From Ruminococcaceae bacterium UBA5579 (lineage in GTDB: Bacteria; Bacillota; Clostridia; Oscillospirales; Ruminococcaceae), in NCBI GenBank assembly GCA_002425305.1, contig DILZ01000085.1:31854-54292 (forward strand): a stretch of DNA of 22,439 nt. Direction: 5' to 3'. The position numbers and the translations under genes are program-made. Position 1 is the stretch's first letter; the number at the start of each line of letters is the position of its first letter. The notes under the pieces are model-generated. The model was given only the letters and a program-made list of their open reading frames with translations, had not been told where the DNA came from and did no database searches. This document shows positions 10,020-19,781 of this stretch, piece after piece.

Positions 10020-10109
10020 GGAGAAATACCCAAGTGGTGAAGGGGCTCCCCTGCTAAGGGAGTAGGTCGGGAGACCGGCGCGAGGGTTCAAATCCCTCTT
10101 TCTCCGCCA
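10020..10109 (+). tRNA. tRNA-Ser (anticodon GCT)
   Basis: This is a 90-nt class II tRNA. The acceptor stem GGAGAAA (10020-10026) pairs with TTTCTCC (10099-10105), followed by G and an encoded CCA. The anticodon stem CTCCC/GGGAG encloses the loop CTGCTAA, with anticodon GCT at 10053-10055 (reads AGC/AGU). The long variable arm and the T-loop TTCAAAT fit tRNA-Ser. The 3' part from 10087 on is duplicated at 19757-19781, so this gene is the integration site of a mobile element and has been restored by it. Confidence 0.97.
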
Positions 10110-10111
10110 AT
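10087..10111 (+). repeat. attL, 25-bp core direct repeat
   Basis: It starts in the T-loop (TTCAAATCCC) and runs through the acceptor strand, CCA and two further bases. It is identical to 19757-19781. The adjoining bases differ on both sides, which defines the exact limits of identity. Confidence 0.95.
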
Positions 10112-10116
10112 ATTAT

Positions 10117-10161
10117 ATCCCTCACAAACAGCTTTGTTAAGCCGCTTATGAGGGATTTTTT
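10117..10161 (+). terminator. Terminator of tRNA-Ser supplied by the element
   Basis: ATCCCTCA (10117-10124) pairs with TGAGGGAT (10149-10156) and a T-run follows. It lies inside the element, just past attL, so transcription of the occupied tRNA gene ends in element DNA. Confidence 0.75.
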
Positions 10162-10201
10162 ATACCCTTTATTCTAAATATACCCTTTAATTTACCCTTT
10201 A
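10161..10201 (+). repeat. TACCCTTTA repeats, left end (3 copies)
   Basis: TATACCCTTTA at 10161-10171 and 10179-10189 and TTTACCCTTTA at 10191-10201, between attL and the left GTGTCCGA array. Two more copies lie at the matching place near the right end. Likely binding sites for excisionase or integrase. The remaining bases to 10295 are AT-rich with nothing recognised. Confidence 0.6.
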
Positions 10202-10295
10202 CTTTAATTAACATATATCAACTATTAGAATTTATCATACAAATCATATCATTAACTATATACCTATTATATAAATATATAGTGGTATAGGGTTT

Positions 10296-10437
10296 AGAAG
10301 TGTCCGAAGCGTCCGAAAAGGCTTGTAGAACGGCTTTGTGGGCATTTTTAAAGTGTCCGAGACTTGTCCGTGCTAAAGTGATAAAGCGGCTCGAAGCGCA
10401 TTGTTATGCGAAATATTGTGCTTTAAGAAGTGTCCGA
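10296..10437 (+). repeat. Left subterminal GTGTCCGA array (inverted copy at right end)
   Basis: Copies of AAGTGTCCGA start at 10298, 10351 and 10428, with variants AGCGTCCGA (10308) and TTGTCCGT (10364). The stretch, including the hairpin GCATTGTTATGC (10398-10409), aligns along its whole length with the reverse complement of 19425-19587. The right copy has one extra 11-bp unit. A 61-residue open frame over this array is a by-product of the repeat. These look like arm-type sites for the integrase; a replication or regulatory role is possible. Confidence 0.75.
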
Positions 10438-10483
10438 AGAATAGCTGCACGATTGCGGTGCGTTTTTTCTTTTTCAGCCCTGT

Positions 10484-10515
10484 AAAACAAAAAGGCTGCG
10501 CCGAAACGCAGCCTT
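10484..10515 (-). terminator. Terminator of small RNA B
   Basis: Stem AAGGCTGCG/CGCAGCCTT (9 bp, loop of 6). On the minus strand it is followed by TTTTTGTTTT. Confidence 0.85.
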
Positions 10516-10527
10516 AACTTTTAGAAC

Positions 10528-10630
10528 TCCCACTCACAGTAGGGTACACTGCTTTTACCAGCCCCACTCACAGTAGGGTACACTGCTTTTACCAGTCCCA
10601 CTCACGGTAGGGTACACACGCTTTTTACAG
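10528..10630 (-). repeat. Three tandem 34-35-bp repeats in RNA B
   Basis: Two copies differ by one base; the third is more diverged and one base longer. They are directly adjacent with no spacers, which excludes a CRISPR array. Confidence 0.9.
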
Positions 10631-10669
10631 AAGCCGCAACTTCCATACAGAGCATTTCTGCTCACTTAT

Positions 10670-10698
10670 ATTATATCACACTAATCACCTTTTGTCAA
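10670..10698 (-). promoter_or_regulatory. Consensus sigma-A promoter of small RNA B
   Basis: On the minus strand, TTGACA (10693-10698), 17-bp spacer, TATAAT (10670-10675). Confidence 0.85.
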
Positions 10699-10781
10699 TC
10701 CAATTTCAACAGATTTAAAATTTTTTTATTGCTTTCTAAAGAAAACCCCATCGCCAATCAGCAAGGAAATGACAAAACTGC

Positions 10782-10801
10782 AATTCGCTATTGGAGAATT
10801 T
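10782..10801. repeat. Degenerate copy of the element's AATTCGCC palindrome
   Basis: AATTCGCTATTGGAGAATTT differs at two positions from the copy at 18601. It lies downstream of the PBECR-like ORF. Confidence 0.55.
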
Positions 10802-10806
10802 ATAAG

Positions 10807-10835
10807 TAAAAGCCTTGCTCGGTTTGAGCAAGGCT
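10807..10835 (-). terminator. Terminator of the PBECR-like ORF
   Basis: AGCCTTGCTC (10811-10820) and GAGCAAGGCT (10826-10835) form a 10-bp stem. On the minus strand it is followed by TTTTA. Confidence 0.75.
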
Positions 10836-10841
10836 GTTTGA

Positions 10842-11282
10842 TTATTCAATGGATTCGGGCTTGTTTGCATATAGTTTTTTAGCCCTTGCCTTGTCAATCT
10901 GCTCCGAAAGGGAAAGTTTGCCCTGCTCCTTGTCGGGATGCTTGTCAGCCTTTTCAACAGGGCTTTTATGGCTCTGCTGAACATAACCCAAAGGAACTTC
11001 GTTTAAGGGCTTGACATTTTCGAAGGAATATGCTATACTGTTACCAAAGCAGATAATTGTCGCTGATTGGGGGAATTGGACTCCCGTATCCAAGTACAAT
11101 TTGTCTGCTTTTTCTTTATTCATTGCAAGAACGCTGTTGCTTTTGGTCATCTTTTCCATACAGTTCTCGATGTTTTTCTTGCCGTGAATAGTTAAAACCT
11201 TGTTGACACGTCCGTGTTGCCCTTTTACGTTTAACATAATCGGAACAATAATACTATCTTGTTGTTTATCTTTAAAGTTCAC
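10842..11282 (-). CDS. PBECR-like nuclease-domain protein, probably 5'-truncated or frameshifted
   Basis: The ORF has 146 codons. Residues 10-100 resemble, from memory, the PBECR (barnase/EndoU/colicin E5-D/RelE-like) nuclease region at the end of large phage and conjugative polyvalent proteins: IIVPIMLNVKGQ, a HGKKNIEN segment, then TGVQFPQSATI. The tail (100-146) is charged and low in complexity. The only start available at the 5' end is GTG with no good RBS. A different frame just upstream encodes KGSPVVISEL, which in such proteins precedes the IIVP strand; joining the two needs a +1 shift at CTT-TAA (11272-11277). So this may be a remnant of a larger gene, or a toxin-like gene read from the RNA A promoter. 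It sits between two tandem-hairpin RNA genes. Confidence 0.5.
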   Translation of the reverse strand: MNFKDKQQDSIIVPIMLNVKGQHGRVNKVLTIHGKKNIENCMEKMTKSNSVLAMNKEKADKLYLDTGVQFPQSATIICFGNSIAYSFENVKPLNEVPLGYVQQSHKSPVEKADKHPDKEQGKLSLSEQIDKARAKKLYANKPESIE

Positions 11283-11357
11283 TGATTACAACAGGAGAAC
11301 CTTTTTCAGTCCATCCCTTCGCGCCGATAGCATTTTGCTTTTCTTTTTCAGCTTTGT

Positions 11358-11391
11358 AAAAGAAAAAGGCTTCGGCAAACGCCGAAGCCTT
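11358..11391 (-). terminator. Terminator of small RNA A
   Basis: AAGGCTTCGGC (11366-11376) with GCCGAAGCCTT (11381-11391), an 11-bp stem with a 4-nt loop, followed on the minus strand by TTTTTCTTTT. If it leaks, the PBECR-like ORF 76 nt downstream would be transcribed from the same promoter. Confidence 0.88.
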
Positions 11392-11398
11392 TCTATCG

Positions 11399-11506
11399 TT
11401 CCCACTTCTACGGTAGGGTTCTCCTCTTTAATAGTTCCCACTTATACGGCTGGGTTCTCCTCTTTGATAGTTCCCACTTATACGGCTGGGTTCTCCTCTT
11501 TATGGG
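11399..11506 (-). repeat. Three tandem 36-bp repeats in RNA A
   Basis: The middle copy and the promoter-proximal copy are identical for 31 bases. The terminator-proximal copy differs in the hairpin loop and one stem base. The last five bases of the promoter-proximal copy diverge. Confidence 0.9.
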
Positions 11507-11509
11507 ATA

Positions 11510-12427
11510 TCAATCCCCTAGCAAGCTTTCGCTCTTTTTTATTATACAACACTTTGACGGATTTGTCAAGACTTTTTTTTGCAACAGCTCGTTGAAGTCT
11601 TTTACACCGTTTTCTTCAAGTATGCGCCTACACGGGCGCAAGCCGTGTTCTGACGTAAACTCGCGCCCCGGGTCGTCATTGTCGGCACAGGAGTAGATCA
11701 CCATTCCGCTGTCGGCAAACCTCTTGATTGAGCTATACTTAAGACCCGCCATTGAAACAAGCACCGAGCCTTGTATCTTCTCGTTGTCGGCGAGCTGCCA
11801 AAATGAGAGTAAATCAATTGCGCTTTCGAAGGCATAACACCTCCGCGGTTCTCCGAGCTTTATTGAGAATACGCTGTCGGTCGTCCCTTTGGCAACTCCC
11901 TTGAAACGCTTCTTGGAATTTGTACCTTGAATTTCCGCGCCAACAGCTGCGCCCGTGCTGTCGTAATGAACAAATACCGCGTTCCCACAAATATCTTGGT
12001 ACAACAGCCTGTTATGGGCGAGCTGCGAAACAATCTCCCGGCTGATTTTCCGAGTTTGGCATAAGTACACGAAAACCTTTCGCATATTGTCGGCTCGTTT
12101 TGGCAGCGTGAAGCTTTTCTTTTCATCCTTGTGAATTTCATCACGGCGAATATCATAAGCGCAGTCCTTTGTAAGCTCGTTTACAGCTGTCAAAAAATTC
12201 ATTCCGATTGCTTTTGTCAAGCAGTTTAGGGAATTCGCGCCGCCCTTGCTTATTTTAAAGCAATGCCATTGATTAGTGACGGTGTTCACATAAAGCCCAC
12301 CAAAGCCTCTTATGTGAAGCTCATCTTGCAGACGTTCGCAGTCGTAGCCGCCACCAAGAAAATACTCGGTAAGATCGGCGTTCCGTGCCCGCGCAATCCG
12401 CTCTTTTGATACATAGCCTTTATCCAT
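11510..12427 (-). CDS. DUF3991/TOPRIM-domain protein (primase-like)
   Basis: The protein has 305 residues. The N-terminal part (1-95) resembles the DUF3991-type zinc-finger-like module of mobile-element primases: LTEYFLGGGYDCERL, then NQWHCFKISKGGANSLNCL. A TOPRIM domain spans about 195-290, with E201 (AFESAIDLLSFW) and the DxD-like CADNDDPGREF (D249, D251). It probably primes or processes DNA for the element during transfer or replication, together with the SF3 helicase, which lacks a primase domain of its own. The ATG at 12427 has GAGGTGG six bases upstream. A REP-like palindrome lies just before that RBS. The last codons contain the perfect promoter of small RNA A, so the C-terminal tail may have been changed when that unit was acquired. 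Confidence 0.8.
   Translation of the reverse strand: MDKGYVSKERIARARNADLTEYFLGGGYDCERLQDELHIRGFGGLYVNTVTNQWHCFKISKGGANSLNCLTKAIGMNFLTAVNELTKDCAYDIRRDEIHKDEKKSFTLPKRADNMRKVFVYLCQTRKISREIVSQLAHNRLLYQDICGNAVFVHYDSTGAAVGAEIQGTNSKKRFKGVAKGTTDSVFSIKLGEPRRCYAFESAIDLLSFWQLADNEKIQGSVLVSMAGLKYSSIKRFADSGMVIYSCADNDDPGREFTSEHGLRPCRRILEENGVKDFNELLQKKVLTNPSKCCIIKKSESLLGD
11541..11569 (-). promoter_or_regulatory. Consensus sigma-A promoter of small RNA A
   Basis: On the minus strand, TTGACA (11564-11569), 17-bp spacer, TATAAT (11541-11546). It lies entirely within the end of the TOPRIM coding sequence. Confidence 0.85.
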
Positions 12428-12437
12428 ATTCCACCTC

Positions 12438-12456
12438 AATTCGCCACCGGCGAATT
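12438..12456. repeat. Palindrome AATTCGCC/GGCGAATT before the TOPRIM gene
   Basis: Arms of 8 bp with the 3-nt centre ACC. It directly follows the stop codon of the TnpW-like gene and directly precedes the RBS GAGGTGG, so in mRNA it is a hairpin against the ribosome site. Confidence 0.8.
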
Positions 12457-12648
12457 TCAAAGCCCGCTCTTTCCCTCGGACAATTCCTCGGCTACCTTTG
12501 CCTCAATCAGTTTAATCAATTTCTCTTTTGCTTTAGACCGCGTAATTTCCTCGCCATACGTAGAAACTATGTATGTTGTTTTCCCGATTTCGTGTTTGGA
12601 AACACTATCGGGGGTTTGAATTTTATCCGTAAATGCCTTTTTTTCCAT
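12457..12648 (-). CDS. TnpW-like small transposon protein
   Basis: This 63-residue protein has a core of IGKTTYIVSTYGEEITRSKAKEKLIKLIEAK. It resembles the TnpW family of small proteins found in clostridial conjugative and mobilizable elements (recognition from memory). Its function is not known. It has a beta-hairpin-like TTYIVSTY followed by an amphipathic helix. GGAGG stands 7 nt before the ATG. The gene lies between relaxase and TOPRIM genes with short junctions, each filled by the same palindrome, so it is part of the mob operon. Confidence 0.65.
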   Translation of the reverse strand: MEKKAFTDKIQTPDSVSKHEIGKTTYIVSTYGEEITRSKAKEKLIKLIEAKVAEELSEGKSGL

Positions 12649-12659
12649 ATCACACCTCC

Positions 12660-12676
12660 ATTCGCCATTGGCGAAT
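12660..12676. repeat. Palindrome ATTCGCC/GGCGAAT before the TnpW-like gene
   Basis: Arms of 7 bp with a 3-nt centre, between the relaxase stop codon and the GGAGG of the next gene. The arrangement is the same as at 12438. Confidence 0.8.
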
Positions 12677-12677
12677 T

Positions 12678-14057
12678 TTACAACTCGTTGTTTTTGTCCT
12701 TATCTTTGTTGCTTTCTTTGTCAAGCTGTTCAAGCTGCTTTTGTTTCTTTTTCACCTCCGCAATTTCCGTTTTGATTTTGGTGTAGCTCTCAAACAAAGC
12801 CGCCTTCTGCTTCCCAAGCTCTGCAATTTCCTTTTCGAGATTTGTACGCGAAGGCAGCTTCCCGTTTGCGTTCAGAAGCGGCTCAACTTCCGCTTTGGCT
12901 GCGTCATATAAGTGCAGCTCGTCCTCGTGTTCGCGGAAGAATTTCTCCCTGTTTTTCGCCGCTCTGTACTCGGAATATACGGGCTTCAAATCAAGATATG
13001 CTTTGATTTTCTTTGCCGCAAGCTGCTTTTCGGATATTTCGCGCTCGCATTTTTTTATCGAACGAGTGATATCGAGCTGACTGTCATAGAGATCAACCAT
13101 TCGATTTTGAAGTCCTTCGCGAATACCAACACCTTTTTCGGTAAGCTCGTTTATAAGCGCGGACGCGTTTTTCATATTCTGAAGCATAGCCCACCGCTTT
13201 AAGCCTTCGTTCTCTGCCACCTTGCCCTCGATAGCGATGATCCTTTCGTTACTCTGAACGGGCTTATATGGGGCTTGAGCTTCGCGCTGCTCCTGCCGCA
13301 GTCTGAACTCGATCCGTCGTTCAATCCTGGTTCGCAGCTGCTCCTCTTGGTAAAACCAACCGAGGGTCTTGGAGCGCGTAAAACGCTCCTGTCCGCTTGC
13401 CCGAAACGAGATGTATTTCCCGCGCTTTATCTCATAGCCCTTTTCTTGCATTTTCCAAAGGAAATCATCAAACGAAGCCGCCGTCATTACGCAGTCGTCA
13501 ATGTTCTCTTTCAGCTTCGCCTTCCAGGAGTTCCCTGCCTTGTTCTGCTCCCACTCATAATGGGACTTGCCTTTGCCCTTGTCGGGAATCTGAATTATCG
13601 ACAAGCCGTTTTCGCGGCAAAGCTTATCGCTTATTTGGCGGATAGCTTGCCACGCGGGAAATGGCTTTTGGTCGTGTTCTCTGCTGAAGGACTTCCCCGT
13701 TTCATAGTTCACCGAATTTATGATGATATGATTATGAATATGCGCCTTGTCGCAATGGGTCGCGAGGACGTATTCATACTTGCCGCCGAGCAGCTCGTCA
13801 CACATCTTTTTTCCTATCTCCTGCGCCTGTTCAAGAGTGGCTTCACCCGGGGCGAATGACTGTATCAAATGATACGCTAAATTCTTTCCGCTGAAGCCAA
13901 ATTTATGGCGCGTTTGATCAAATTCCAAACTCGCAAATTCGGGAGAACAGTTACAACCAAACACATTTTTTTGCTTCTCGGTTTTGCTTGCGTTTGTGAT
14001 ATAATCTATCGCCTTGTCTAGCGTAGTTTTGATAGGATGGATTTTTGTAGCTGCCAT
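12678..14057 (-). CDS. MOBP-family relaxase (mobilization nuclease)
   Basis: This 459-residue relaxase nicks oriT and carries the strand into the recipient. Family signatures are the candidate catalytic Tyr Y19 in LDKAIDYITN, the H63 motif (NLAYHLIQSFAPGE) and the metal-binding three-His motif HIHNHII (H106, H108, H110). The nuclease domain occupies about 1-250. The rest (about 290-459) is helical and coiled-coil, ending in a Lys/Asp/Asn-rich tail (SNKDKDKNNEL), as is common in Firmicutes MobA/VirD2-like proteins. AGGTGGAG precedes the ATG, and the start overlaps mobC by 40 nt, so the two are translationally coupled. No coupling protein or secretion genes are in the element, so transfer needs a helper. 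Confidence 0.93.
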   Translation of the reverse strand: MAATKIHPIKTTLDKAIDYITNASKTEKQKNVFGCNCSPEFASLEFDQTRHKFGFSGKNLAYHLIQSFAPGEATLEQAQEIGKKMCDELLGGKYEYVLATHCDKAHIHNHIIINSVNYETGKSFSREHDQKPFPAWQAIRQISDKLCRENGLSIIQIPDKGKGKSHYEWEQNKAGNSWKAKLKENIDDCVMTAASFDDFLWKMQEKGYEIKRGKYISFRASGQERFTRSKTLGWFYQEEQLRTRIERRIEFRLRQEQREAQAPYKPVQSNERIIAIEGKVAENEGLKRWAMLQNMKNASALINELTEKGVGIREGLQNRMVDLYDSQLDITRSIKKCEREISEKQLAAKKIKAYLDLKPVYSEYRAAKNREKFFREHEDELHLYDAAKAEVEPLLNANGKLPSRTNLEKEIAELGKQKAALFESYTKIKTEIAEVKKKQKQLEQLDKESNKDKDKNNEL

Positions 14058-14353
14058 ATTTTCTCCACCTCGCCTTTGAGATAATTCAAGTCGTCTTGGT
14101 AGGCATTGCCTGTCGCATTTACACGTGCCGCGACTTGATTTATATTCACGCCGATCTTGTTGATTTCCTTGGTCATATCTCGAAGAGCCAACTCGTCATA
14201 ATCGTACACGAGAACGCGTTCGCAAATGGCGGCGTCGCGAATATACTCCGACATATTTTTCCGTTTAGAAAGCGTCGTTTTTTTCTTGATAATTTCCCTC
14301 TCTTCCGGCGTTACCCAGAAGTTCAGATTTATATTTCGCTTTCTTTTTTCCAT
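14018..14353 (-). CDS. mobC: MobC-like relaxosome accessory protein
   Basis: This 111-residue protein begins with a ribbon-helix-helix-like segment (INLNFWVTPEEREIIKKK). It continues with the MobC signature around INKIGVNINQVAARVNATGNAY, which is highly typical of MobC proteins. MobC binds near oriT and helps the relaxase open the DNA. The gene lies directly before and overlaps the relaxase gene. A candidate oriT is one gene upstream. AGGTG is present 12 nt before the ATG, a slightly long spacing. Confidence 0.9.
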   Translation of the reverse strand: MEKRKRNINLNFWVTPEEREIIKKKTTLSKRKNMSEYIRDAAICERVLVYDYDELALRDMTKEINKIGVNINQVAARVNATGNAYQDDLNYLKGEVEKIWQLQKSILSKLR

Positions 14354-14374
14354 TTGATTTTTGCACCTGCCATT

Positions 14375-14761
14375 TCAATCAATTTCACCGATCATTAACC
14401 GCAGCTTTGCAAGAATTCCCTTGCGCCTTCGCCAACACCAAATGTAAGTCACTTTTTTCATCTCCGCAAGTTCTTTGAGCGTGTAATTCTCAAAGAAATG
14501 CAGATTGATAAAGTCGAATTCATCAGCCGAGAGCTTGTTCAATGCCGACCATAATTTTCGCGACCTCTCCGCGCGTTCAAAATCCTCCTCAATGTTATAT
14601 TTCGAAGCAGGTGGCGAGTATAATTCCTCAATGCTCACAACGCCGTTTGCTTGCTCCTGTTCGTGGCAATATCGCTCCCTTCGTTGGGACATTCGATACT
14701 GCCTATACACATCTTCACTTACATCAACCTTTTGTCTGCCGATTTTCAAGTAAAAACCCAT
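14375..14761 (-). CDS. Sigma-70 region-4-like HTH protein
   Basis: The protein has 128 residues. The C-terminal half has a sigma region 4-like layout (LSADEFDFINLHFFENYTLKELAEMKKV followed by a basic helix WCWRRRKGILAKLRL). The N-terminal half is charged and contains no sigma region 2. Such small sigma-like proteins are common in mobile elements of Firmicutes and may act as transcription or relaxosome factors; no target is evident. The ATG at 14761 is chosen because GGAAGGA lies before it. It is the first gene after the candidate oriT and is followed after 21 nt by mobC. Confidence 0.7.
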   Translation of the reverse strand: MGFYLKIGRQKVDVSEDVYRQYRMSQRRERYCHEQEQANGVVSIEELYSPPASKYNIEEDFERAERSRKLWSALNKLSADEFDFINLHFFENYTLKELAEMKKVTYIWCWRRRKGILAKLRLMIGEID

Positions 14762-14833
14762 TTTTATCCTTCCTTCCGAGAGATGCCGTTGCACCTAAAA
14801 ATTCATTCCGCCGCCTCACACTTTGCGGCATAA

Positions 14834-14930
14834 TCGGTCGATGTTTTTCATCGACCGAACAGGGGTTTGGGGATACGCCCCAACAAGCATTTTGCCCCGC
14901 TCGTCTTGGACGAGCAACAGGGGGCAAAAT
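14834..14930. other. Candidate origin of transfer (oriT)
   Basis: Three inverted repeats lie within 97 bp: TCGGTCGATG/CATCGACCGA (14834-14858, loop TTTTT); TTGGGG/CCCCAA (14867-14883); and a large cruciform with arms ATTTTGCCCC (14889-14898) and GGGGCAAAAT (14921-14930), holding an inner GCTCGTC/GACGAGC stem. The region is GC-rich and non-coding and stands at the head of the mob operon, the usual place for a MOBP oriT. The nick site cannot be fixed by eye, though CCCCAACAAGC next to the second repeat is a good candidate. Confidence 0.65.
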
Positions 14931-15013
14931 CGTCAAATGTATGTACATTGACGTTGCTTGCTATTTTTGTAAACGCCAAATTTCATTTTGTGGGATTATG
15001 TGAATTTTTTAGA

Positions 15014-15166
15014 TTAGTAACACTCCCACTTTTCACAAAAATTATCTTCGTAAAGTTCGCGATACGTCATAGATTTTCCGCGAGCTTTCCCAGACATTTT
15101 CAGCGCGAAAAACGCTGCCACAAATGCCGAGATTGATAACCCGATTGCCCAGACTTTCCCGCCCAA
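15014..15166 (-). CDS. Small single-pass membrane protein (tentative)
   Basis: The open frame of 50 residues starts at TTG 15166, 9-10 nt after a strong GGAAGGAG. It encodes one hydrophobic segment (VWAIGLSISAFVAAFFAL, residues 5-22) followed by a basic then acidic tail. A rival ATG at 15174 uses the same RBS but yields only 24 unremarkable residues. It lies 19 nt after the helicase gene on the same strand. No family is recognised. The clear transmembrane segment and RBS support it; the unusual start and small size count against it. Confidence 0.4.
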   Translation of the reverse strand: MGGKVWAIGLSISAFVAAFFALKMSGKARGKSMTYRELYEDNFCEKWECY

Positions 15167-15185
15167 ATTTTCATCACTCCTTCCC

Positions 15186-16460
15186 TTAATAAATCGGCTT
15201 GATTTTAATTCCGCGAAACCCTCTGACCTCAAGCCCGGAATTATTCCTGATGTGATTGTCGTTTTGAATTCCGTACTTGCGTTTGTTATCGTGAAGCCAC
15301 GCAACAAACGTATGTTTTTTCAGCGGCTCTAAAGCGTTCCTTCGACACCAGCAAGAATATGTGAAATACAACTCGGCACTCGCCGTTTCGCCCTCTCCGA
15401 TAACGACGTAATTCTCATCAGCCAGGAACTGAATTATGTTGCAGTTGTCGGTCATAGCGTCGACGAGATTTTGCCGCGCTTTCTCGGAAATTGTAAACCG
15501 AAAATTATTTCCGACAAGCCGTTGAAGTCCACGAAAACACCACAAGAATATTTCGTTTTTCTCCTCGATAAACCTATCGGCGATGTACGGATCATCAAGC
15601 CTGTCGGGCGGCTTGGGCTTGGTCGTCAAAATCAAAAGCCGCCGCGAAAAGCCCTCGCTCTTGTCGTACAATGCTTTCGGCGAACCGTTTCCGAGGCACA
15701 AAAACCGACTGTACAGCAATTCTTGGCGCGATTGCTGCCCTTTAGCCTCAACATCGATTGGAGTTTCGGCGGTGATAATGCTCTTAACATAGCCCGTGGA
15801 TTTCAGCGCGGACATCTGCATATCATCATCAACCATCAGCAGCTTGTTAATGAGGTTGTATCGAAAAAATCTGTCACTCTCGATACGGTGAAAATCCCCG
15901 GTAAGCATTGCATTTCCGAAAATCGAGTTAAGCATCACACCTATACGGCTTTTTCCCTCGCCGCCGCTTCCGATGACAAACAACGCGGTCTGCCCTTTTG
16001 TGGACGGAACAAGGCAATAACCGAGGTATTCCTGCAGCGTTTGAATATCCTCGCCATCAAGAAGCTCGTTGAGATACGCGAGAAAGCGCTTGGGTTCACC
16101 CGCATTCGGAACGTACTCCACCTTCAAGCGATTTACGCAGAAACGCTTCTGCGGAGAGAATTTTCCGTTGGTATTCAAAACCCCGTTCTGCACGTGTATC
16201 TCGTTCGCGTTAACCGAGAGCGGCTCACTGTGGCAATATAGCTTGAGGGCTTCGTAAAGGTTGAGCGTTTTGGTCGCAATTCCCGATTTTATGCCACTTT
16301 GGAATATCATATCGCCAATCCTCGCCTTGATGTTCTCCGCGCTCTCCTCACCGTCCACGCTGTAAAGCCGTCCGCCGATGCACTTCAGCGGAAGTACCCT
16401 GGCAAACTCCGCGCAGAACTCGCGCTCGTCTATCTTCCCCTCGGCTGAGAGCCATTTCAT
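15186..16460 (-). CDS. SF3 (D5/P4-type) helicase, without primase domain
   Basis: This 424-residue protein belongs to the phage/plasmid primase-helicase (P4 alpha, D5-like) superfamily. The D5 N-terminal-like region covers about 60-150. The SF3 ATPase core carries Walker A GSGGEGKS (164-171), Walker B LLMVDDD (207-213), the motif C Asn in LCLGNGSP (N258), and an arginine pair in FSRRLL (272-276). The C-terminal winged part ends at residue 424. It unwinds DNA in replication of the excised element or during transfer. The usual N-terminal AEP primase domain is absent, and the separate TOPRIM protein may supply priming. The start codon overlaps the stop of the HTH gene (ATGA), so it is translationally coupled. 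Confidence 0.88.
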   Translation of the reverse strand: MKWLSAEGKIDEREFCAEFARVLPLKCIGGRLYSVDGEESAENIKARIGDMIFQSGIKSGIATKTLNLYEALKLYCHSEPLSVNANEIHVQNGVLNTNGKFSPQKRFCVNRLKVEYVPNAGEPKRFLAYLNELLDGEDIQTLQEYLGYCLVPSTKGQTALFVIGSGGEGKSRIGVMLNSIFGNAMLTGDFHRIESDRFFRYNLINKLLMVDDDMQMSALKSTGYVKSIITAETPIDVEAKGQQSRQELLYSRFLCLGNGSPKALYDKSEGFSRRLLILTTKPKPPDRLDDPYIADRFIEEKNEIFLWCFRGLQRLVGNNFRFTISEKARQNLVDAMTDNCNIIQFLADENYVVIGEGETASAELYFTYSCWCRRNALEPLKKHTFVAWLHDNKRKYGIQNDNHIRNNSGLEVRGFRGIKIKPIY

Positions 16461-16729
16461 AGCGGGTCACCGTTGGATTCGTCTGTTTCTTTGGCGGCGT
16501 CGGGAATAAGATTATTTTCCGCTTTTAGCTCTTCTTTGACCTTGCACTTCTCAAGCCAGGCGAAAAAATCATCTTGCTTTATTAGCTTGCGGTCCCCGAT
16601 CCTGATTACGGGAACGTCCTCACGGTTTAGTATGCGATACGCCATATATCGGGTAATCCCCAACTTAACAAGGTCTTTTGCAGATAGCAGTAGCGGCATA
16701 TCATAGGGTTTGTTCTGTTCTTTTTTCAT
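16457..16729 (-). CDS. Excisionase-family HTH protein (Xis/AlpA-like)
   Basis: This 90-residue protein has a MerR-like winged HTH at 12-60: LLLSAKDLVKLGITRYMAYRIL, then VPVIRIGDRKLIKQDDFFAWLE. This pattern is standard for the excisionase family. It probably bends the element ends to help integrase excise, and may also regulate the operon it leads. The remaining tail is acidic. It is the first gene of the leftward operon under a consensus promoter and overlaps the helicase gene by 4 nt. AAAGGA is present about 14 nt before the ATG, which is long and suggests modest translation. Confidence 0.8.
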   Translation of the reverse strand: MKKEQNKPYDMPLLLSAKDLVKLGITRYMAYRILNREDVPVIRIGDRKLIKQDDFFAWLEKCKVKEELKAENNLIPDAAKETDESNGDPL

Positions 16730-16775
16730 TGTTTATTCAATTCCTTTCTTTACATCATATCAATCCAACTTCGAG

Positions 16776-16794
16776 CCAAATAACTCATATTTGG
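16776..16794. promoter_or_regulatory. Candidate operator of the XRE regulator
   Basis: CCAAAT (16776-16781) and ATTTGG (16789-16794) form an inverted repeat with 7-bp gap, just downstream of the predicted start of the leftward transcript. Position suggests repression of the xis-helicase operon. Confidence 0.4.
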
Positions 16795-16805
16795 ATTATA
16801 TAAGT

Positions 16806-16834
16806 ATTATACAACATATCGTATTAAAAGTCAA
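16806..16834 (-). promoter_or_regulatory. Sigma-A promoter of the leftward xis/helicase operon
   Basis: On the minus strand, TTGACT (16829-16834), 17-bp spacer, TATAAT (16806-16811). Confidence 0.85.
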
Positions 16835-16874
16835 TAGATTTTTTCGATTTTATATTCCATTTTTTTATTAGATG

Positions 16875-16883
16875 TGTTATAAT
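16875..16883 (+). promoter_or_regulatory. Extended -10 promoter of the XRE regulator and integrase
   Basis: TGT directly before TATAAT (16878-16883) is an extended -10; the -35 region is poor. Transcription would start near 16890, which rules out the upstream ATG at 16889 as the regulator start. Confidence 0.6.
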
Positions 16884-16918
16884 ATATAATGAGAAAGTAT
16901 ATGCGAGGTGTCGTTGCG

Positions 16919-17407
16919 ATGACGAGTGGTGAAAAAATTAAGAAAATTCGCGAGCTAAAGGGATTATCCCGAAAAGAGTTGGCTTTTTTGTGTGGAATGA
17001 GCGAATTTACAATCAGGAACTATGAACAGGGTGTTCGAAACATATCTTCAAAGCAGCTAGAGATAATCGCCACCAAGCTAGGTGTCAATATAAACGCGCT
17101 GTCTAATCCAACAGCAGCCGACACCTTTGTTTCGGTCGCGCACATACTCTTTGATTTTGAAGATGAGTTCGGACTTGCCGTGTCCCAGGAGGATGGCTTC
17201 TTATGCATACGCGCCGAGGAGCTGACAACAAACAATTTCCTGCTTGAATGGTACACTATGAAGGAGAAGCTCGACAAAGGAGAAATCACGCGCGAGGAGT
17301 ACGATATGTGGCGGTATAACTACCCTACATCTCAAGCAAAAATTTTTCAAGAGCAGATAAGGAAAATGCGCGGAAATCAATCCGATAATGGCAAGGACGA
17401 CAAGTAA
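16919..17407 (+). CDS. XRE-family transcriptional regulator
   Basis: This 162-residue protein carries a Cro/CI HTH at about 3-58 (GEKIKKIRELKGLSRKELAFLCGMSEFTIRNYEQG). The C-terminal region, about 60-162, is of unknown function. It is divergent from the excisionase/helicase operon and 24 nt upstream of the integrase, the position of an element master regulator that keeps excision genes off. The ATG at 16919 has GAGGTG 8 nt upstream and is preferred to the ATG at 16889, which coincides with the predicted transcription start. It has no protease or ImmA partner, so the inducing signal is not visible. Confidence 0.87.
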   Translation: MTSGEKIKKIRELKGLSRKELAFLCGMSEFTIRNYEQGVRNISSKQLEIIATKLGVNINALSNPTAADTFVSVAHILFDFEDEFGLAVSQEDGFLCIRAEELTTNNFLLEWYTMKEKLDKGEITREEYDMWRYNYPTSQAKIFQEQIRKMRGNQSDNGKDDK

Positions 17408-17410
17408 GCA

Positions 17411-17424
17411 TTTTTTTGGGGGGG
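17411..17424 (+). promoter_or_regulatory. T7-G7 tract forming the integrase ribosome binding site
   Basis: Seven T followed by seven G, then CGGCTTT and the integrase ATG. No other Shine-Dalgarno is present, so the G-run is the RBS. Both runs are prone to slippage. Confidence 0.6.
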
Positions 17425-17431
17425 CGGCTTT

Positions 17432-18583
17432 ATGGGAAGAAACGCACAAGGCAACGGCTCAATTCGCCGCCGCAAGGACGGCAAGTGGGAAGGTAGATAC
17501 ACGTTGGGCAGAGATCCGAAAACGGGCAAGCAAGTTCAGAAGTCCGTTTACGGTAAAACGCAGCAGGAAGTCCGCAAGAAGCTGGCGCAGATCACCGCCG
17601 ATATAGATAACGGAGTGTTTGTCGAGCCTTCAAAAATCACTGTTGGAGAATGGCTTGATGTGTTCTTAAAGGACTATAACCGCGACGTTAAGGAGCATAC
17701 ACAAAAGTCTTACGAAACGTGCTGCAGATGTCATCTGAAGCCTATGCTTGGGCGTGTTAAGCTTACCTCTCTGACCGCTCCTATGATACAGAGCGCGTAT
17801 AACGCGATTTTAGAGGGAGAAACGAGTAATAAAGCTCTTTCCCCTAAAACATTGAAAAATTGCCACGGCGTGCTTCACAAGGCTCTTAAAATCGCTCTGA
17901 AGGTAGGGTACATACGTTCTAACCCCGCAGACGCTGTTGCGCTTCCTTACGTTCAAAAGCCCTGTATTAACCCTCTGAACGACGAGGATATTGCAAGGTT
18001 CTTAAAAGCAATAAAATGGCACAAATACGAGGACTTGTTCAAAGTAACCTTATTTACGGGTATGCGGCAAGGCGAGGCTTTGGGGCTGACGTGGGATTGT
18101 GTGGATTTTAAAAAACATACAATCAGCATTGAAAAGCAGCTTATTCGGGAAAAGAAAAAGGGCGGTAAATACAAGTTCGCGCCCCTAAAGAATGACAAGT
18201 GCCGCGTCGAGCAGCTGCCCGACACGATATTCGATATTTTTGTTAAGCTGCACGAGCTGCCGACCTCACAAAACGAAATGAACCTTGTGTTTGTGAAGGA
18301 GGACGGTAAGCACCTATCGCATTGTACGGTAAGCAAGAATTTTAAGGAAATTGTGAAAGAACTTGGTCTGTCAGAGCAGCGTTTTCACGATCTGCGCCAT
18401 ACATTCGCGGTTCTTTCGCTCCAGAACGGCGACAGTATCAAAACCTTGCAGGAAAATCTCGGTCACGCGACCGCTGCCTTTACAATGCAAGTTTACGCGC
18501 ACGTTTCCGATAGAATGAAAAAGGAAAGCGCGGACAAAATGCAAGCCTATATAGACAGTATCGAGAATGATAAACAAGGCTGA
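17432..18583 (+). CDS. int: Tyrosine integrase (Tn916/phage type)
   Basis: This 383-residue integrase has an N-terminal arm-binding AP2-like domain (GSIRRRKDGKWEGRYTLGRDPKTGKQ, about 9-65). A core-binding SAM-like domain follows (about 70-165), then the catalytic domain. The catalytic set is complete: R212 (TGMRQGEAL), K253, H319/R322 (HDLRH), H345 (LGH) and Y355 (MQVYAHVSD). It catalyses recombination between attP and the 3' end of the tRNA-Ser gene. The arm domain suggests that repeated sites exist near the ends, and GTGTCCGA arrays are in fact found there. The gene follows the XRE regulator and is translated from an unusual G-run RBS. Confidence 0.96.
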   Translation: MGRNAQGNGSIRRRKDGKWEGRYTLGRDPKTGKQVQKSVYGKTQQEVRKKLAQITADIDNGVFVEPSKITVGEWLDVFLKDYNRDVKEHTQKSYETCCRCHLKPMLGRVKLTSLTAPMIQSAYNAILEGETSNKALSPKTLKNCHGVLHKALKIALKVGYIRSNPADAVALPYVQKPCINPLNDEDIARFLKAIKWHKYEDLFKVTLFTGMRQGEALGLTWDCVDFKKHTISIEKQLIREKKKGGKYKFAPLKNDKCRVEQLPDTIFDIFVKLHELPTSQNEMNLVFVKEDGKHLSHCTVSKNFKEIVKELGLSEQRFHDLRHTFAVLSLQNGDSIKTLQENLGHATAAFTMQVYAHVSDRMKKESADKMQAYIDSIENDKQG

Positions 18584-18600
18584 AAAGAAATGAGAAGCAC

Positions 18601-18619
18601 AATTCGCCATTGGCGAATT
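18601..18619. repeat. Palindrome AATTCGCC/GGCGAATT between int and vapB
   Basis: AATTCGCCATTGGCGAATT: 8-bp arms and centre ATT, 17 nt after the integrase stop and just before the vapBC promoter. It is the same unit as at 12438 and 12660. Confidence 0.85.
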
Positions 18620-18628
18620 TGAAAGCTA

Positions 18629-18658
18629 TTGACAAAATGCCGTTTTTTAGTGTATACT
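18629..18658 (+). promoter_or_regulatory. Sigma-A promoter of vapBC
   Basis: TTGACA (18629-18634), 18-bp spacer, TATACT (18653-18658). The leader is short and carries GAGGGGTG. Confidence 0.8.
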
Positions 18659-18681
18659 ATAAGCAAAGAGGGGTGATATAT

Positions 18682-18945
18682 ATGGCTATAGCAAAAATAC
18701 TCACAGACGGGAATACCCAGATAATGGTGATCCCCAACAATCTGCACCTCAACTGCAACGAGGTGGAAGTTAGTCAAGTCGGTTTAGAGCTTAGGGTAGT
18801 GCCTGTAGCGGCAGAAAAAGCCGACAAAGGATTTGAGAAATTCTTAAACTCCATATCCGAATTGGGCGAATTTCCGAATGATGTTCTTGAAACCATCGAG
18901 GATGCCCGAAGAAATGAAGTTCCGTCAAAGAGGGAAGCGTTATGA
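18682..18945 (+). CDS. vapB: VapB-like antitoxin
   Basis: This 87-residue protein has an N-terminal AbrB/SpoVT-like DNA-binding fold (AKILTDGNTQIMVIPNNLHLNCNEVEVSQVG), the usual VapB layout. A C-terminal tail (about 55-87) would wrap the toxin. The ATG at 18682 is preceded by GAGGGGTG; the upstream in-frame start at 18610 would lie before the promoter. The stop overlaps the vapC start (ATGA), the standard coupled arrangement. It neutralises VapC and is expected to repress its own promoter. The pair probably stabilises the element in the host population. Confidence 0.85.
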   Translation: MAIAKILTDGNTQIMVIPNNLHLNCNEVEVSQVGLELRVVPVAAEKADKGFEKFLNSISELGEFPNDVLETIEDARRNEVPSKREAL

Positions 18946-19340
18946 CATATATGCTTGACACAAACATCTGCATTTACGCACAAAAAGGAGTATCTGCGGT
19001 CATTGAAAGAATGCGAGTAGAATCGCGTAACGGCTTGGCTATTTCGGCAATAACATTGGCAGAGCTTTGGCACGGCATTGAGGGCTCTGCAGCCTATGAT
19101 AAAAATGTTCTGCGTCTGAATGGTCTTTTGAATGTGGTCGAAGTCATCCCATTTGACGATAACGCTGCGGCTCATTATGGTAAGATAGCGGCTTATCTTC
19201 GGCAAAATGGTACTCCAATAGGCACAATGGATATGCTGATAGCCGCGCACGCACGATCGCAAGGATTAACTGTGGTCACCAACAATGTCCGAGAGTTCGA
19301 GCGCGTTCCCGATTTAAAGATTGAGAATTGGATCGAATAA
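18942..19340 (+). CDS. vapC: VapC toxin (PIN-domain ribonuclease)
   Basis: This 132-residue PIN-domain protein starts MTYMLDTNICIYAQKG, with catalytic D6. It continues with the conserved Glu in LAELWHGIE and the Asp in GTMDMLIAAHA. Close to the C-terminus is TNNVREFERVPDLKIENWI, the usual VapC ending in which an Asn often holds the fourth position. VapC enzymes cut tRNA or rRNA and stop translation when VapB is lost. Overlap with vapB is 4 nt. A strong terminator follows 5 nt after the stop. All key residues appear intact, so the toxin should be active. Confidence 0.93.
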   Translation: MTYMLDTNICIYAQKGVSAVIERMRVESRNGLAISAITLAELWHGIEGSAAYDKNVLRLNGLLNVVEVIPFDDNAAAHYGKIAAYLRQNGTPIGTMDMLIAAHARSQGLTVVTNNVREFERVPDLKIENWIE

Positions 19341-19345
19341 TACTG

Positions 19346-19372
19346 AAACGGCACTGAAAAGTGCCGTTTTTT
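19346..19372 (+). terminator. Terminator of vapBC
   Basis: AAACGGCACT (19346-19355), loop GAAA, AGTGCCGTTT (19360-19369), then further T. The bases to 19424 hold nothing recognised. Confidence 0.9.
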
Positions 19373-19424
19373 ACAAGTCTGAAAAAGAAAAAACATTAAA
19401 TAATTATCATACTGTAATCAATAT

Positions 19425-19587
19425 GGGACACTTCTCGGACACTTCTAAAAAGAACAAATTTCGCATAACAATGCAGTTTAAACCGTTTTCGCGCTTTAGC
19501 ACGGACACTTCTCGGACACTTCTCGGACACTTTAAAAATGCCTGTAAAGCCGTTCTGCAAGCCGTTTCGGACGCTTCGGACACTTCT
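19425..19587 (-). repeat. Right subterminal GTGTCCGA array (inverted copy of left array)
   Basis: On the minus strand, AAGTGTCCGA copies lie at 19435-19444, 19512-19521, 19523-19532 and 19576-19585. Variants lie at 19425, 19502 and 19567. Neighbouring copies at 19512 and 19523 have an 11-bp period. The stretch with CGCATAACAATGC (19462-19474) is shared with the left array. A 100-residue open frame across it (19407-19709, minus) mirrors the left-end frame and is judged non-coding. Confidence 0.75.
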
Positions 19588-19618
19588 TTTTTAACTCTCG
19601 CGCGCGAGGAACGGCTAT

Positions 19619-19641
19619 TTATACCCTTTAAAATACCCTTT
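19619..19641 (+). repeat. TACCCTTTA repeats, right end (2 copies)
   Basis: TATACCCTTTA (19619-19629) and AATACCCTTTA (19631-19641), in the same orientation as the three copies at the left end, between the array and attR. The 115 bp from here to attR are AT-rich with nothing recognised. Confidence 0.6.
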
Positions 19642-19756
19642 ACCAGTTGTGATCTATCGAAAAAAGCAAATATATTCAAAACAGGAAACCCCATAATAGA
19701 GCCATTCATAAGACGCTTTTATATCCAAGAAACACATAAAAACTTTATATGGATAT

Positions 19757-19781
19757 TTCAAATCCCTCTTTCTCCGCCAAT
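19757..19781 (+). repeat. attR, 25-bp core direct repeat
   Basis: Identical to 10087-10111. It is a partial tRNA-Ser 3' end without the rest of the gene, as left by integration. Confidence 0.95.

What the first reader, a model, noticed from the sequence alone, without database searches (positions are those of the whole stretch)
10484..11569. Two homologous tandem-hairpin RNA genes with perfect promoters in one mobile element
RNA A (11534 to 11358) and RNA B (10663 to 10484) have the same design and nearly the same length: TTGACA-17-TATAAT, short structured leader, three directly adjacent 34-36-nt repeats, a GC-rich terminator and an identical TTTTTNTTTT tail. Their repeat cores align (CCCTAC-GT-AGTGGG), but the hairpin is built from different pairs: CCCA/TGGG in A, CCC plus ACT with AGT plus GGG in B. 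That is compensatory change expected for selection on structure. No ORF explains the repeats. I know no RNA family with this form.
Basis: partly seen in the sequence, partly recalled or inferred. Interest (0 to 1): 0.85.

Follow-up and report, generated by a model that had tools for sequence, protein, structure and literature searches.

The report
Two toxin-free type III antitoxin RNAs
Two small RNA genes on a bacterial mobile element are antidote RNAs of a known toxin-antitoxin kind that sit there without their toxin, apparently kept intact, perhaps to protect the cell or the element from toxins carried by other elements.

Summary
The two RNA genes are real. They are not a new RNA family: both are type III (ToxI-like) antitoxin RNAs. 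Relatives lie directly upstream of ToxN/AbiQ toxin genes, and 64 distinct repeats show a covarying H-type pseudoknot, as in ToxI, rather than a simple hairpin. What is unusual is that neither window RNA has a toxin. Both lie in a 9.7-kb integrative mobilizable element in a tRNA-Ser gene, and no ToxN was found in the (75.6% complete) genome. Among 53 related arrays, 22 have an intact ToxN directly downstream, 8 a remnant, 20 none, and 3 could not be judged. Orphan arrays are as intact as paired ones. Some lie in clusters of 3 to 5 mostly separately promoted arrays; the clearest cluster has five toxin-free arrays whose repeats match different toxin-linked arrays elsewhere ('antitoxin bank'). Best explanation: stand-alone antitoxins that neutralise ToxN-type RNases of other elements in trans (anti-addiction or counter-defence). 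That function is inferred; leftovers of broken ToxIN modules is the main rival. Seven paper searches listed no report of orphan type III antitoxin RNAs. New variant of a known kind.

The parts
10087..19781 (.). Integrative mobilizable element carrying both RNA genes, inserted at the 3' end of a tRNA-Ser gene
   Evidence: 25-bp exact direct repeat at 10087-10111 and 19757-19781; tRNA-Ser 10020-10109; integrase, relaxase, MobC/NikA
11541..11569 (-). Promoter of RNA A, TTGACA-17-TATAAT
   Evidence: 12 of 12 consensus
11503..11534 (-). RNA A leader, resembling the leader of the ToxN-linked array L040
   Evidence: window 11534-11398 aligns 88% over 141 nt to L040:1107-1247
11395..11502 (-). RNA A: three 36-nt ToxI-like repeats (type III antitoxin)
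   Evidence: best toxin-linked match 0.92, 0.92 (L040) and 0.94 (L054) per repeat
11365..11392 (-). RNA A terminator (12-bp stem, U tail)
10670..10698 (-). Promoter of RNA B, TTGACA-17-TATAAT
   Evidence: 12 of 12 consensus
10620..10663 (-). RNA B leader (two small hairpins), shared with orphan relatives and similar to leaders of toxin-linked arrays
   Evidence: same leader type upstream of ToxN in G065 and G208
10518..10619 (-). RNA B: three 34-nt ToxI-like repeats (type III antitoxin)
   Evidence: best toxin-linked match 0.86 (L057) for repeat 1 and 0.91, 0.94 (L051) for repeats 2 and 3
10492..10515 (-). RNA B terminator
10842..11282 (-). ORF between the two RNAs, 146 aa, partial MuF_C domain (profile 46-102 of 103); not a ToxN
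   Evidence: PF18819 E=4.4e-07; no ToxN HMM hit in the window
11510..12460 (-). DUF3991/Toprim protein; its 3' end overlaps the RNA A promoter and leader
   Evidence: four close relatives are 315-341 aa
12678..14057 (-). Relaxase (MobA/VirD2)
   Evidence: PF03432 E=6.4e-38
14018..14353 (-). NikA/MobC mobilisation protein
   Evidence: PF21983, PF05713
15186..16460 (-). DUF5906 protein (probable replication helicase/primase, function recalled)
   Evidence: PF19263 E=2.2e-17
16889..17407 (+). HTH regulator
   Evidence: PF01381
17432..18583 (+). Tyrosine integrase
   Evidence: PF00589 E=1.4e-26

Best explanation
RNA A and RNA B are ToxI-family antitoxin RNA genes of type III toxin-antitoxin systems that stand alone (orphan) on a mobilizable element. 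Each has its own promoter and terminator, and three repeats of two different specificities. Shown: homology to arrays that precede ToxN/AbiQ toxin genes, the pseudoknot that covaries across the family, absence of a toxin gene next to them, and conservation of such orphan arrays in other elements. Inferred: the RNAs are made, and the repeats are bound, and perhaps cut into units, by ToxN RNases that come from other elements, and so neutralise them in trans. This would let the element displace or survive loss of a ToxIN-bearing plasmid or island (anti-addiction), or blunt ToxIN-type abortive infection. Related clusters of arrays look like banks of several specificities. My separate estimates: type III antitoxin RNA 0.96; orphan in this genome 0.85; kept for trans-neutralisation 0.55.
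For: (1) Relatives precede ToxN: Fusobacterium plasmid array directly upstream of an annotated ToxN/AbiQ toxin; 22 of 53 arrays have a ToxN hit spanning at least 140 profile positions within 150 nt; two of the toxins match PF13958 (E 5e-49 and 6e-31), one matches PDB ToxN 4ato, 2xd0, 7d8o and AbiQ 4glk, another the PADLOC AbiQ model. (2) Pseudoknot: 396 of 448 cells paired in 64 distinct repeats, versus a mean of 368 and a maximum of 379 in 2000 shuffles, and 158-231 when partners are slid; S1 alone 204 of 256 versus a shuffle maximum of 196. (3) Unit length and copy number (34-36 nt, about 3) match ToxI/antiQ in the review PMC5086642. (4) Orphans look maintained: S2 183 of 183 pairs, 17 of 20 promoters at 12/12; outside A-type repeats S1 is 137 of 144 in orphans and 216 of 228 in paired arrays; 17 of 20 orphans keep at least three repeats, while 5 of 8 arrays with a toxin remnant have two; window B versus orphan copies in L055 and L071: repeats nearly identical, no match in the flanks. 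(5) Clusters: L071 has five orphan arrays, each with a promoter; L072, L073, L074 and L044 hold 3-5 arrays; the L071 arrays match different toxin-linked arrays of other loci at 0.83-1.00. (6) Second sample found with a covariance model: 9 paired, 9 orphan, 1 undetermined of 19 arrays examined. (7) 11 of 18 orphan-bearing genomes searched have no ToxN match.
Against: No expression data. The host genome is a 75.6% complete assembly, so a cognate ToxN could be missing from it. A-type repeats, RNA A included, pair S1 poorly: 60 of 100 cells in orphans, 14 of 28 in paired arrays, and just two canonical pairs per repeat in RNA A. 8 of 53 arrays carry toxin remnants, and the same-genus genome G380 has a one-repeat array before a broken ToxN, so plain toxin loss does happen. 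Three patterns found nothing in viral contigs, so carriage by phages is not supported. The sampling started from the window's own motif. If 11 orphan-bearing genomes lack ToxN, the proposed targets must come from outside, which was not observed.
Confidence: 0.6

Rival explanations
1. Leftovers: ToxIN modules whose toxin gene was lost, with the antitoxin RNA remaining for a while because its presence costs little. No present function.
For: 8 of 53 arrays have a ToxN remnant; G380 has a one-repeat array before a broken ToxN; L073 has a ToxN fragment after one of its arrays; RNA A's nearest relative L040 still has its ToxN; 11 orphan-bearing genomes have no ToxN to neutralise.
Against: Orphans keep S2 183 of 183 and 17 of 20 perfect promoters, S1 as intact as in paired arrays outside A-type, and mostly three repeats; orphan B is conserved across elements with no match in the flanks; L071 has five orphan arrays 260-330 nt apart, with promoters and terminators and differing repeats, and no ToxN hit in its 20 kb.
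Confidence: 0.27
2. Split module: the cognate ToxN is encoded elsewhere in the same genome and these arrays are its antitoxin in trans.
For: G342 carries five orphan arrays, a further orphan and one ToxN with a differing array; one repeat of an L071 array is 0.94 identical to that ToxN's repeats. G378 and G136 have orphans and ToxN homologs elsewhere.
Against: No ToxN in the own genome: none, best E 0.068 over 61 residues; no ToxN match in 11 of 18 orphan-bearing genomes searched, six of them 94-100% complete.
Confidence: 0.08
3. RNA A is the antitoxin of the ORF that follows it: the MuF_C-domain protein is an unrecognised toxin that replaced ToxN.
For: The ORF starts about 115 nt after the array, behind the terminator, the type III arrangement; in L048 a MuF_C protein follows a second array.
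Against: The ORF lacks profile positions 1-45 and a stop lies two codons before its start; in L048 the MuF_C protein is fused to a guanylate kinase-like domain and follows a different, 43-nt array; window and L048 proteins share 23% over 70 aa; no PADLOC match; A-type arrays of L040 and L054 have ToxN.
Confidence: 0.04
4. A new regulatory RNA family of nested hairpins unrelated to toxin-antitoxin systems, as first proposed.
For: No Rfam family but tRNA at gathering score in the window.
Against: Sequence homology to ToxN-linked arrays and a covarying pseudoknot.
Confidence: 0.01

Closest known systems
ToxIN / AbiQ type III toxin-antitoxin systems (ToxI, antiQ RNAs)
   Same: 34-36-nt tandem repeats, about three copies, promoter, terminator after the array, H-type pseudoknot; relatives sit before ToxN genes
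   Different: No toxin gene follows RNA A or RNA B; two arrays of different specificity on one element
Pseudo-ToxI of phage PhiTE (PMC3475682; abstract, outline and passages seen)
   Same: ToxI-like repeats without a toxin on a mobile genome that suppress ToxN anti-phage activity
   Different: PhiTE wild type has 1.5 repeats, expanded by escape mutation; here full three-repeat genes with own promoter, leader and terminator, on a mobilizable element, of two specificities
Anti-addiction modules and orphan antitoxins of protein type (PMC12548467, passages seen)
   Same: Antitoxin activity proposed against toxins of other elements
   Different: The passages speak of chromosomal toxin-antitoxin loci and cite a phage enzyme antitoxin; not of stand-alone type III RNAs
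CptIN and TenpIN type III systems
   Same: Tandem-repeat RNA antitoxins; some neighbouring arrays in the clusters (41 and 54 nt) are near their lengths (45 and 50 nt, PMC12373285 passage)
   Different: Longer repeats, about two copies; window RNAs fit the ToxI size class
AbiF/RCd22 RNA antitoxin of C. difficile (PMC12373285, passages seen)
   Same: Small RNA antitoxin active in cis and in trans against an RNase toxin
   Different: Two hairpin motifs, HEPN toxin; no RF03085 match in the window

Membership tests
Type III antitoxin RNA, ToxI class | Tandem array of 34-36-nt repeats, about 2-6 copies | tested here: met
   A 3 x 36, B 3 x 34; sizes of ToxI_Pa, ToxI_Bt and antiQ from PMC5086642
Type III antitoxin RNA, ToxI class (RNA B and family) | Each repeat folds as an H-type pseudoknot, S1 of four canonical pairs (PMC8860590 passage) | tested here: met
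   Covariation over 64 distinct repeats; window B repeats 2 and 3 have S1 4/4 and S2 3/3; repeat 1 needs a bulged U
Type III antitoxin RNA, ToxI class (RNA A) | Each repeat folds as an H-type pseudoknot, S1 of four canonical pairs | tested here: inconclusive
   RNA A repeats have S2 3/3 but S1 2/4; toxin-linked A-type repeats are alike (14 of 28 cells)
Type III antitoxin RNA, ToxI class | Sequence homology to arrays that sit with ToxN | tested here: met
   Per-repeat identity 0.86-0.94 to ToxN-linked arrays L040, L051, L054, L057
Type III toxin-antitoxin system (complete module) | ToxN/AbiQ-family RNase gene directly downstream, behind a Rho-independent terminator | tested here: not met
   Terminators present but no ToxN hit downstream of A or B or elsewhere in the window, nor in the 75.6% complete genome
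Type III antitoxin RNA, ToxI class | Processed by and neutralises ToxN | not testable with these tools
   Needs expression and binding assays
Rfam families | Score above gathering threshold | tested here: not met
   One match in the window, a tRNA; 16 weak matches, all below gathering, in 10400-11650
abiF RNA motif (RF03085) | Match to the covariance model | tested here: not met
   Not listed at gathering or at E up to 10 for 10400-11650
CRISPR array | Repeats separated by unique spacers | tested here: not met
   Repeats are directly adjacent

The most novel reading that the evidence does not exclude
Clostridial genomes and mobile elements keep banks of stand-alone type III antitoxin RNAs: clusters of mostly separately promoted, ToxI-like arrays (and possibly other array types) with different specificities, acquired and diversified as an RNA-based immunity against ToxN-type toxins of competing plasmids, islands and defence systems. 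The two window RNAs are a portable two-specificity version on a mobilizable element.
Probability: 0.42. Interest if true: 0.82.

Novelty: new variant of a known kind. Interest (0 to 1): 0.62.

Why it matters
Type III systems are described as antitoxin-plus-toxin operons (PMC5086642, passages seen). If antitoxin-only arrays are common, as in 20 of 53 arrays here and 9 of 19 in a second sample, then RNA antitoxins have a life of their own, toxin annotation alone misses them, and an RNA-level arms race among mobile elements becomes directly testable: each orphan repeat predicts which ToxN it should neutralise.

Tried and rejected
Rejected: (a) nested hairpins as the conserved fold: the third inner pair fails in 47 of 64 repeats while pseudoknot pair S1.2 holds in 58 of 64; the first two inner pairs hold in 63 and 64 of 64, so they do not decide. 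(b) Decoy ribosome-binding sites or CsrA-type GGA decoys, suggested by AAAGAGGAGAA in A: the motif is not shared by B, and homologs explain it better (inference). (c) CRISPR: no spacers. (d) Rfam low-score hits: the three best (BSnc120, ctRNA_p42d, BjrC68) are below gathering and all cover the RNA A terminator. (e) RNA A as an insertion splitting a long ORF: four close DUF3991 relatives are 315-341 aa, like the window's 316 aa; more distant matches lie in open frames of up to 3628 aa. (f) Further copies in the own genome: RNA A and RNA B each occur once, and the repeat model finds these two places.

Dead ends: viral contigs with three patterns gave nothing. The phage collection gave 66 records, 80-90% identical; those listed cover 3-4% of the query, none over the repeats, and the best (E 4e-6) lies over the small-RNA region near 11010-11059. 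The plasmid collection gave 2 records, one of them the Fusobacterium plasmid. The one homologous protein returned for the MuF_C ORF was the window's own. The closest relaxase is 54% identical, and its 6.4-kb contig (L115) shows no array. The PF13958 search rang in none of its control genomes, so I rely on the protein and alignment searches. Region L075 was fetched from a wrong contig and not used.

Rows dropped or set by hand: of 158 extracted repeat units, 7 were dropped as artefact or contig edge, and duplicates were collapsed to 64. L060 (33-nt array) was missed by the array script and is in no count. L050 was moved from remnant to undetermined (309 nt downstream), and L054:5349 was counted as orphan although a second array and then a ToxN follow it. 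L058 (329 nt downstream) and L033 (661 nt) are counted as remnants although the stretch held is short. In some searches the arrays with E up to 2e-8 not already in the first set were classified (19); weaker matches were not. A looser script confused strands and was not used. Of the nine orphans, G434 has the same array sequence as L063, G661 has 564 nt downstream, and G208's next ToxN (1196 nt away) belongs to another array; overlap of the other 18 with the first set was not checked systematically. Orphan-bearing genomes of L037, L054 and G208 were not in the ToxN searches.
Full report
What is there. Promoter perfection alone means little, because 7 of 400 random 140-base stretches of the fetched loci also reach 12 of 12. 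Both genes lie inside an integrative mobilizable element whose ends are a 25-bp exact direct repeat, at 10087-10111 (the end of a tRNA-Ser gene) and 19757-19781. The element carries an integrase, a relaxase, NikA/MobC, DUF5906 and DUF3991 proteins and a PIN-domain (VapC-like) gene. A 146-aa ORF with part of a MuF_C domain lies between the two RNAs.

What it is. A core-pattern search of 297 genomes of the same family matched in 12. Tandem arrays of the same kind stand in four of them, the own genome, G065, G208 and G224; the other eight have single matches with no array around them. A ToxN-like ORF follows the array in G065 and in G208. A Fusobacterium polymorphum plasmid has three related repeats (78% identical over 90 nt) directly upstream of a gene annotated as type III ToxN/AbiQ-family toxin. 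The G065 toxin matches PF13958 ToxN_toxin (E 5.2e-49) and solved ToxN and AbiQ structures (4ato E 2.3e-15, 2xd0, 7d8o, 4glk). One scan of the genome-contig collection with a repeat-junction pattern gave 39 stretches. RNA A and RNA B are therefore ToxI-family antitoxin RNAs. The review PMC5086642 (passages seen) gives ToxI_Pa, ToxI_Bt and antiQ as 36, 34 and 35-nt repeats in 5.5, 2.9 and 2.8 copies, with a terminator before the toxin gene.

Structure. Among 64 distinct repeats the pairs that covary are those of an H-type pseudoknot. S2 pair 1 is C-G in 49, U-A in 14 and U-G in 1; S2 pair 2 is C-G in 62 and U-A in 2; S2 pair 3 is C-G in 63 and U-G in 1. S1 pairs 1 to 4 are formed in 37, 58, 64 and 45 of 64; S1 pair 2 is G-C in 41, A-U in 16 and G-U in 1. 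In all, 396 of 448 cells form standard pairs, against a mean of 368 and a maximum of 379 in 2000 column shuffles, and 158-231 when the partners are slid by 1-3 bases. S2 was part of the search pattern, so S1 is the fairer test: alone it gives 204 of 256 against a shuffle mean of 188 and maximum of 196. Shuffles do not keep relatedness. A-type repeats pair S1 poorly, in orphans (60 of 100 cells) and in toxin-linked arrays (14 of 28) alike, and RNA A has two canonical S1 pairs per repeat. That is a weak point for RNA A.

Orphan state. With a ToxN profile built from the relatives, 53 arrays were found in 40 of 41 loci examined. 22 have a ToxN hit spanning at least 140 profile positions within 150 nt, 8 have a remnant, 20 have none, and 3 are too close to a sequence end (choices made by hand are listed under Tried and rejected). 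A second sample came from a covariance model, with matches in 13 of 394 genomes of the order and 22 of 396 of the family (the samples overlap). Of 19 strong arrays not already classified, 9 are paired, 9 orphan and 1 undetermined; one of these orphans has the same sequence as an orphan of the first set. Of 18 orphan-bearing genomes searched for ToxN, 11 have no match. The other 7 include two with only broken copies (G297/G342 and G302/G224 counted once, as judged from contig lengths and features; G305 and G434 may also be one species). The window's own genome has no ToxN match at E up to 0.001, the best protein match being E 0.068, but it is only 75.6% complete.

Are orphans maintained? In orphan arrays S2 is intact in 183 of 183 pairs, and 17 of 20 have a 12/12 promoter (mean 11.6; paired arrays mean 10.5; random stretches 8.0). 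S1 is paired in 197 of 244 orphan cells and 230 of 256 paired cells; the difference comes from A-type repeats, for without them the values are 137 of 144 and 216 of 228. 17 of 20 orphans have three or more repeats, against 3 of 8 arrays with a toxin remnant. RNA B aligns to orphan arrays of a same-genus genome at 92% over 213 nt (L055) and 90% over 226 nt (L071). The repeats are nearly identical there, and the match stops near the promoter and the terminator. By contrast, a broken ToxN in G380 follows an array reduced to one repeat. RNA A's nearest relative, L040, still has its ToxN, so RNA A could be a capture or a loss.

Banks. L071 holds five orphan arrays in about 1.25 kb, each with its own promoter and a terminator, between an integrase gene and a Zeta-toxin gene. 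L073, L074, L044 and L072 hold 5, 4, 4 and 3 arrays; L074 and L044 include one with a ToxN, L073 one with a ToxN fragment, and some arrays have other repeat lengths (41, 42 or 54 nt). One array of L074 has no promoter of its own by the pattern used. The repeats of the five L071 arrays best match different toxin-linked arrays of other loci: L040 and L054, L051, L032 with L055 and L057, L074, and L057 (0.83-1.00 identity); L055 is from the same genome as L071, the others are not. In four loci where an orphan array lies beside a ToxN, its repeats resemble that toxin's array less (0.67-0.80) than they resemble the best toxin-linked array elsewhere (0.86-0.94), though the latter is a best-of-many value. 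This is what a set of antidotes to foreign toxins would look like; it does not prove it.

How it most likely works. Shown: transcription-unit layout, homology and pseudoknot covariation. From the literature: ToxN cleaves the precursor into units and is held inactive in RNA-protein rings (PMC5086642 and PMC8860590, passages seen); toxin-free ToxI-like RNA on a phage can suppress ToxIN (PMC3475682, abstract and passages seen). Inferred: RNA A and B neutralise ToxN of other elements, so that the mobilizable element or its host is not held hostage by a ToxIN plasmid or island, or is spared ToxIN activation. The main rival is slow decay after toxin loss.

Novelty. Seven full-text searches listed no paper whose title or abstract start speaks of orphan type III antitoxin RNAs or clusters of them. 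Five papers were opened, by passages; 'orphan' does not occur in the type III review. The library holds only openly licensed papers, and the 2012 type III census could not be read. I class it as a new variant of a known kind.

Noticed in passing
window 11011-11112 (+); L071 11487-12180 (+); L073 6100-7190 (-); L044 3819-4160 (+): A second small-RNA gene type: consensus promoter, then a hairpin RNA of about 68-87 nt with varying outer stem and a tip near GGGNAAUUGNAGUCCC, ending in a U run. One copy in the window, antisense to the MuF_C ORF; tandem copies with about 112-116-nt spacing beside the antitoxin clusters of L071, L073 and L044. No Rfam match above gathering and only weak ones below. 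A 50-nt stretch there also matches a fecal phage record at 86%. Possibly another bank of small RNAs.
   Followed up: partly
L024 2660-3724 (Fusobacterium polymorphum plasmid): A second likely type III module upstream of the first: a 47-nt array (2.9 copies) followed by a 'hypothetical protein' that the two-sequence ToxN profile hits at E 2e-34, though Pfam gives it no family.
   Followed up: partly
L073 7646-7765 and 8022-8134; L074 17220-17323 and 17504-17618; L044 1826-1945; L054 4119-4233: Arrays of 41-nt and 54-nt repeats inside the clusters; in L054 the 41-nt array precedes a ToxN homolog split over two frames, the others have no ToxN hit directly after them.
   Followed up: no
L163 6200-8000 (G380, same genus): Orphan three-repeat array, then a promoter, a long leader-like stretch and a 369-aa ORF of unknown kind, then a one-repeat array and a broken ToxN.
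   Followed up: no
L047 81-1718: ToxN N-terminal stretch (profile 15-75) at the start of a much longer open frame, apparently a chimeric protein behind a two-repeat array.
   Followed up: no
window 10296-10487 and 19369-19587: Inverted repeats of 75-87 nt near both ends of the element, rich in TGTCCGA words; the tail sequence after RNA A and RNA B (TTTTACA..GCTGAAAAAGAAAA) has a similar copy at 19369-19394 after the PIN-domain gene.
   Followed up: no
L048 2083-3428: A 43-nt array (2.1 copies), terminator, and a guanylate kinase-like plus MuF_C protein; MuF_C also follows RNA A in the window, a possible but weak hint of a MuF_C link with repeat RNAs.
   Followed up: partly
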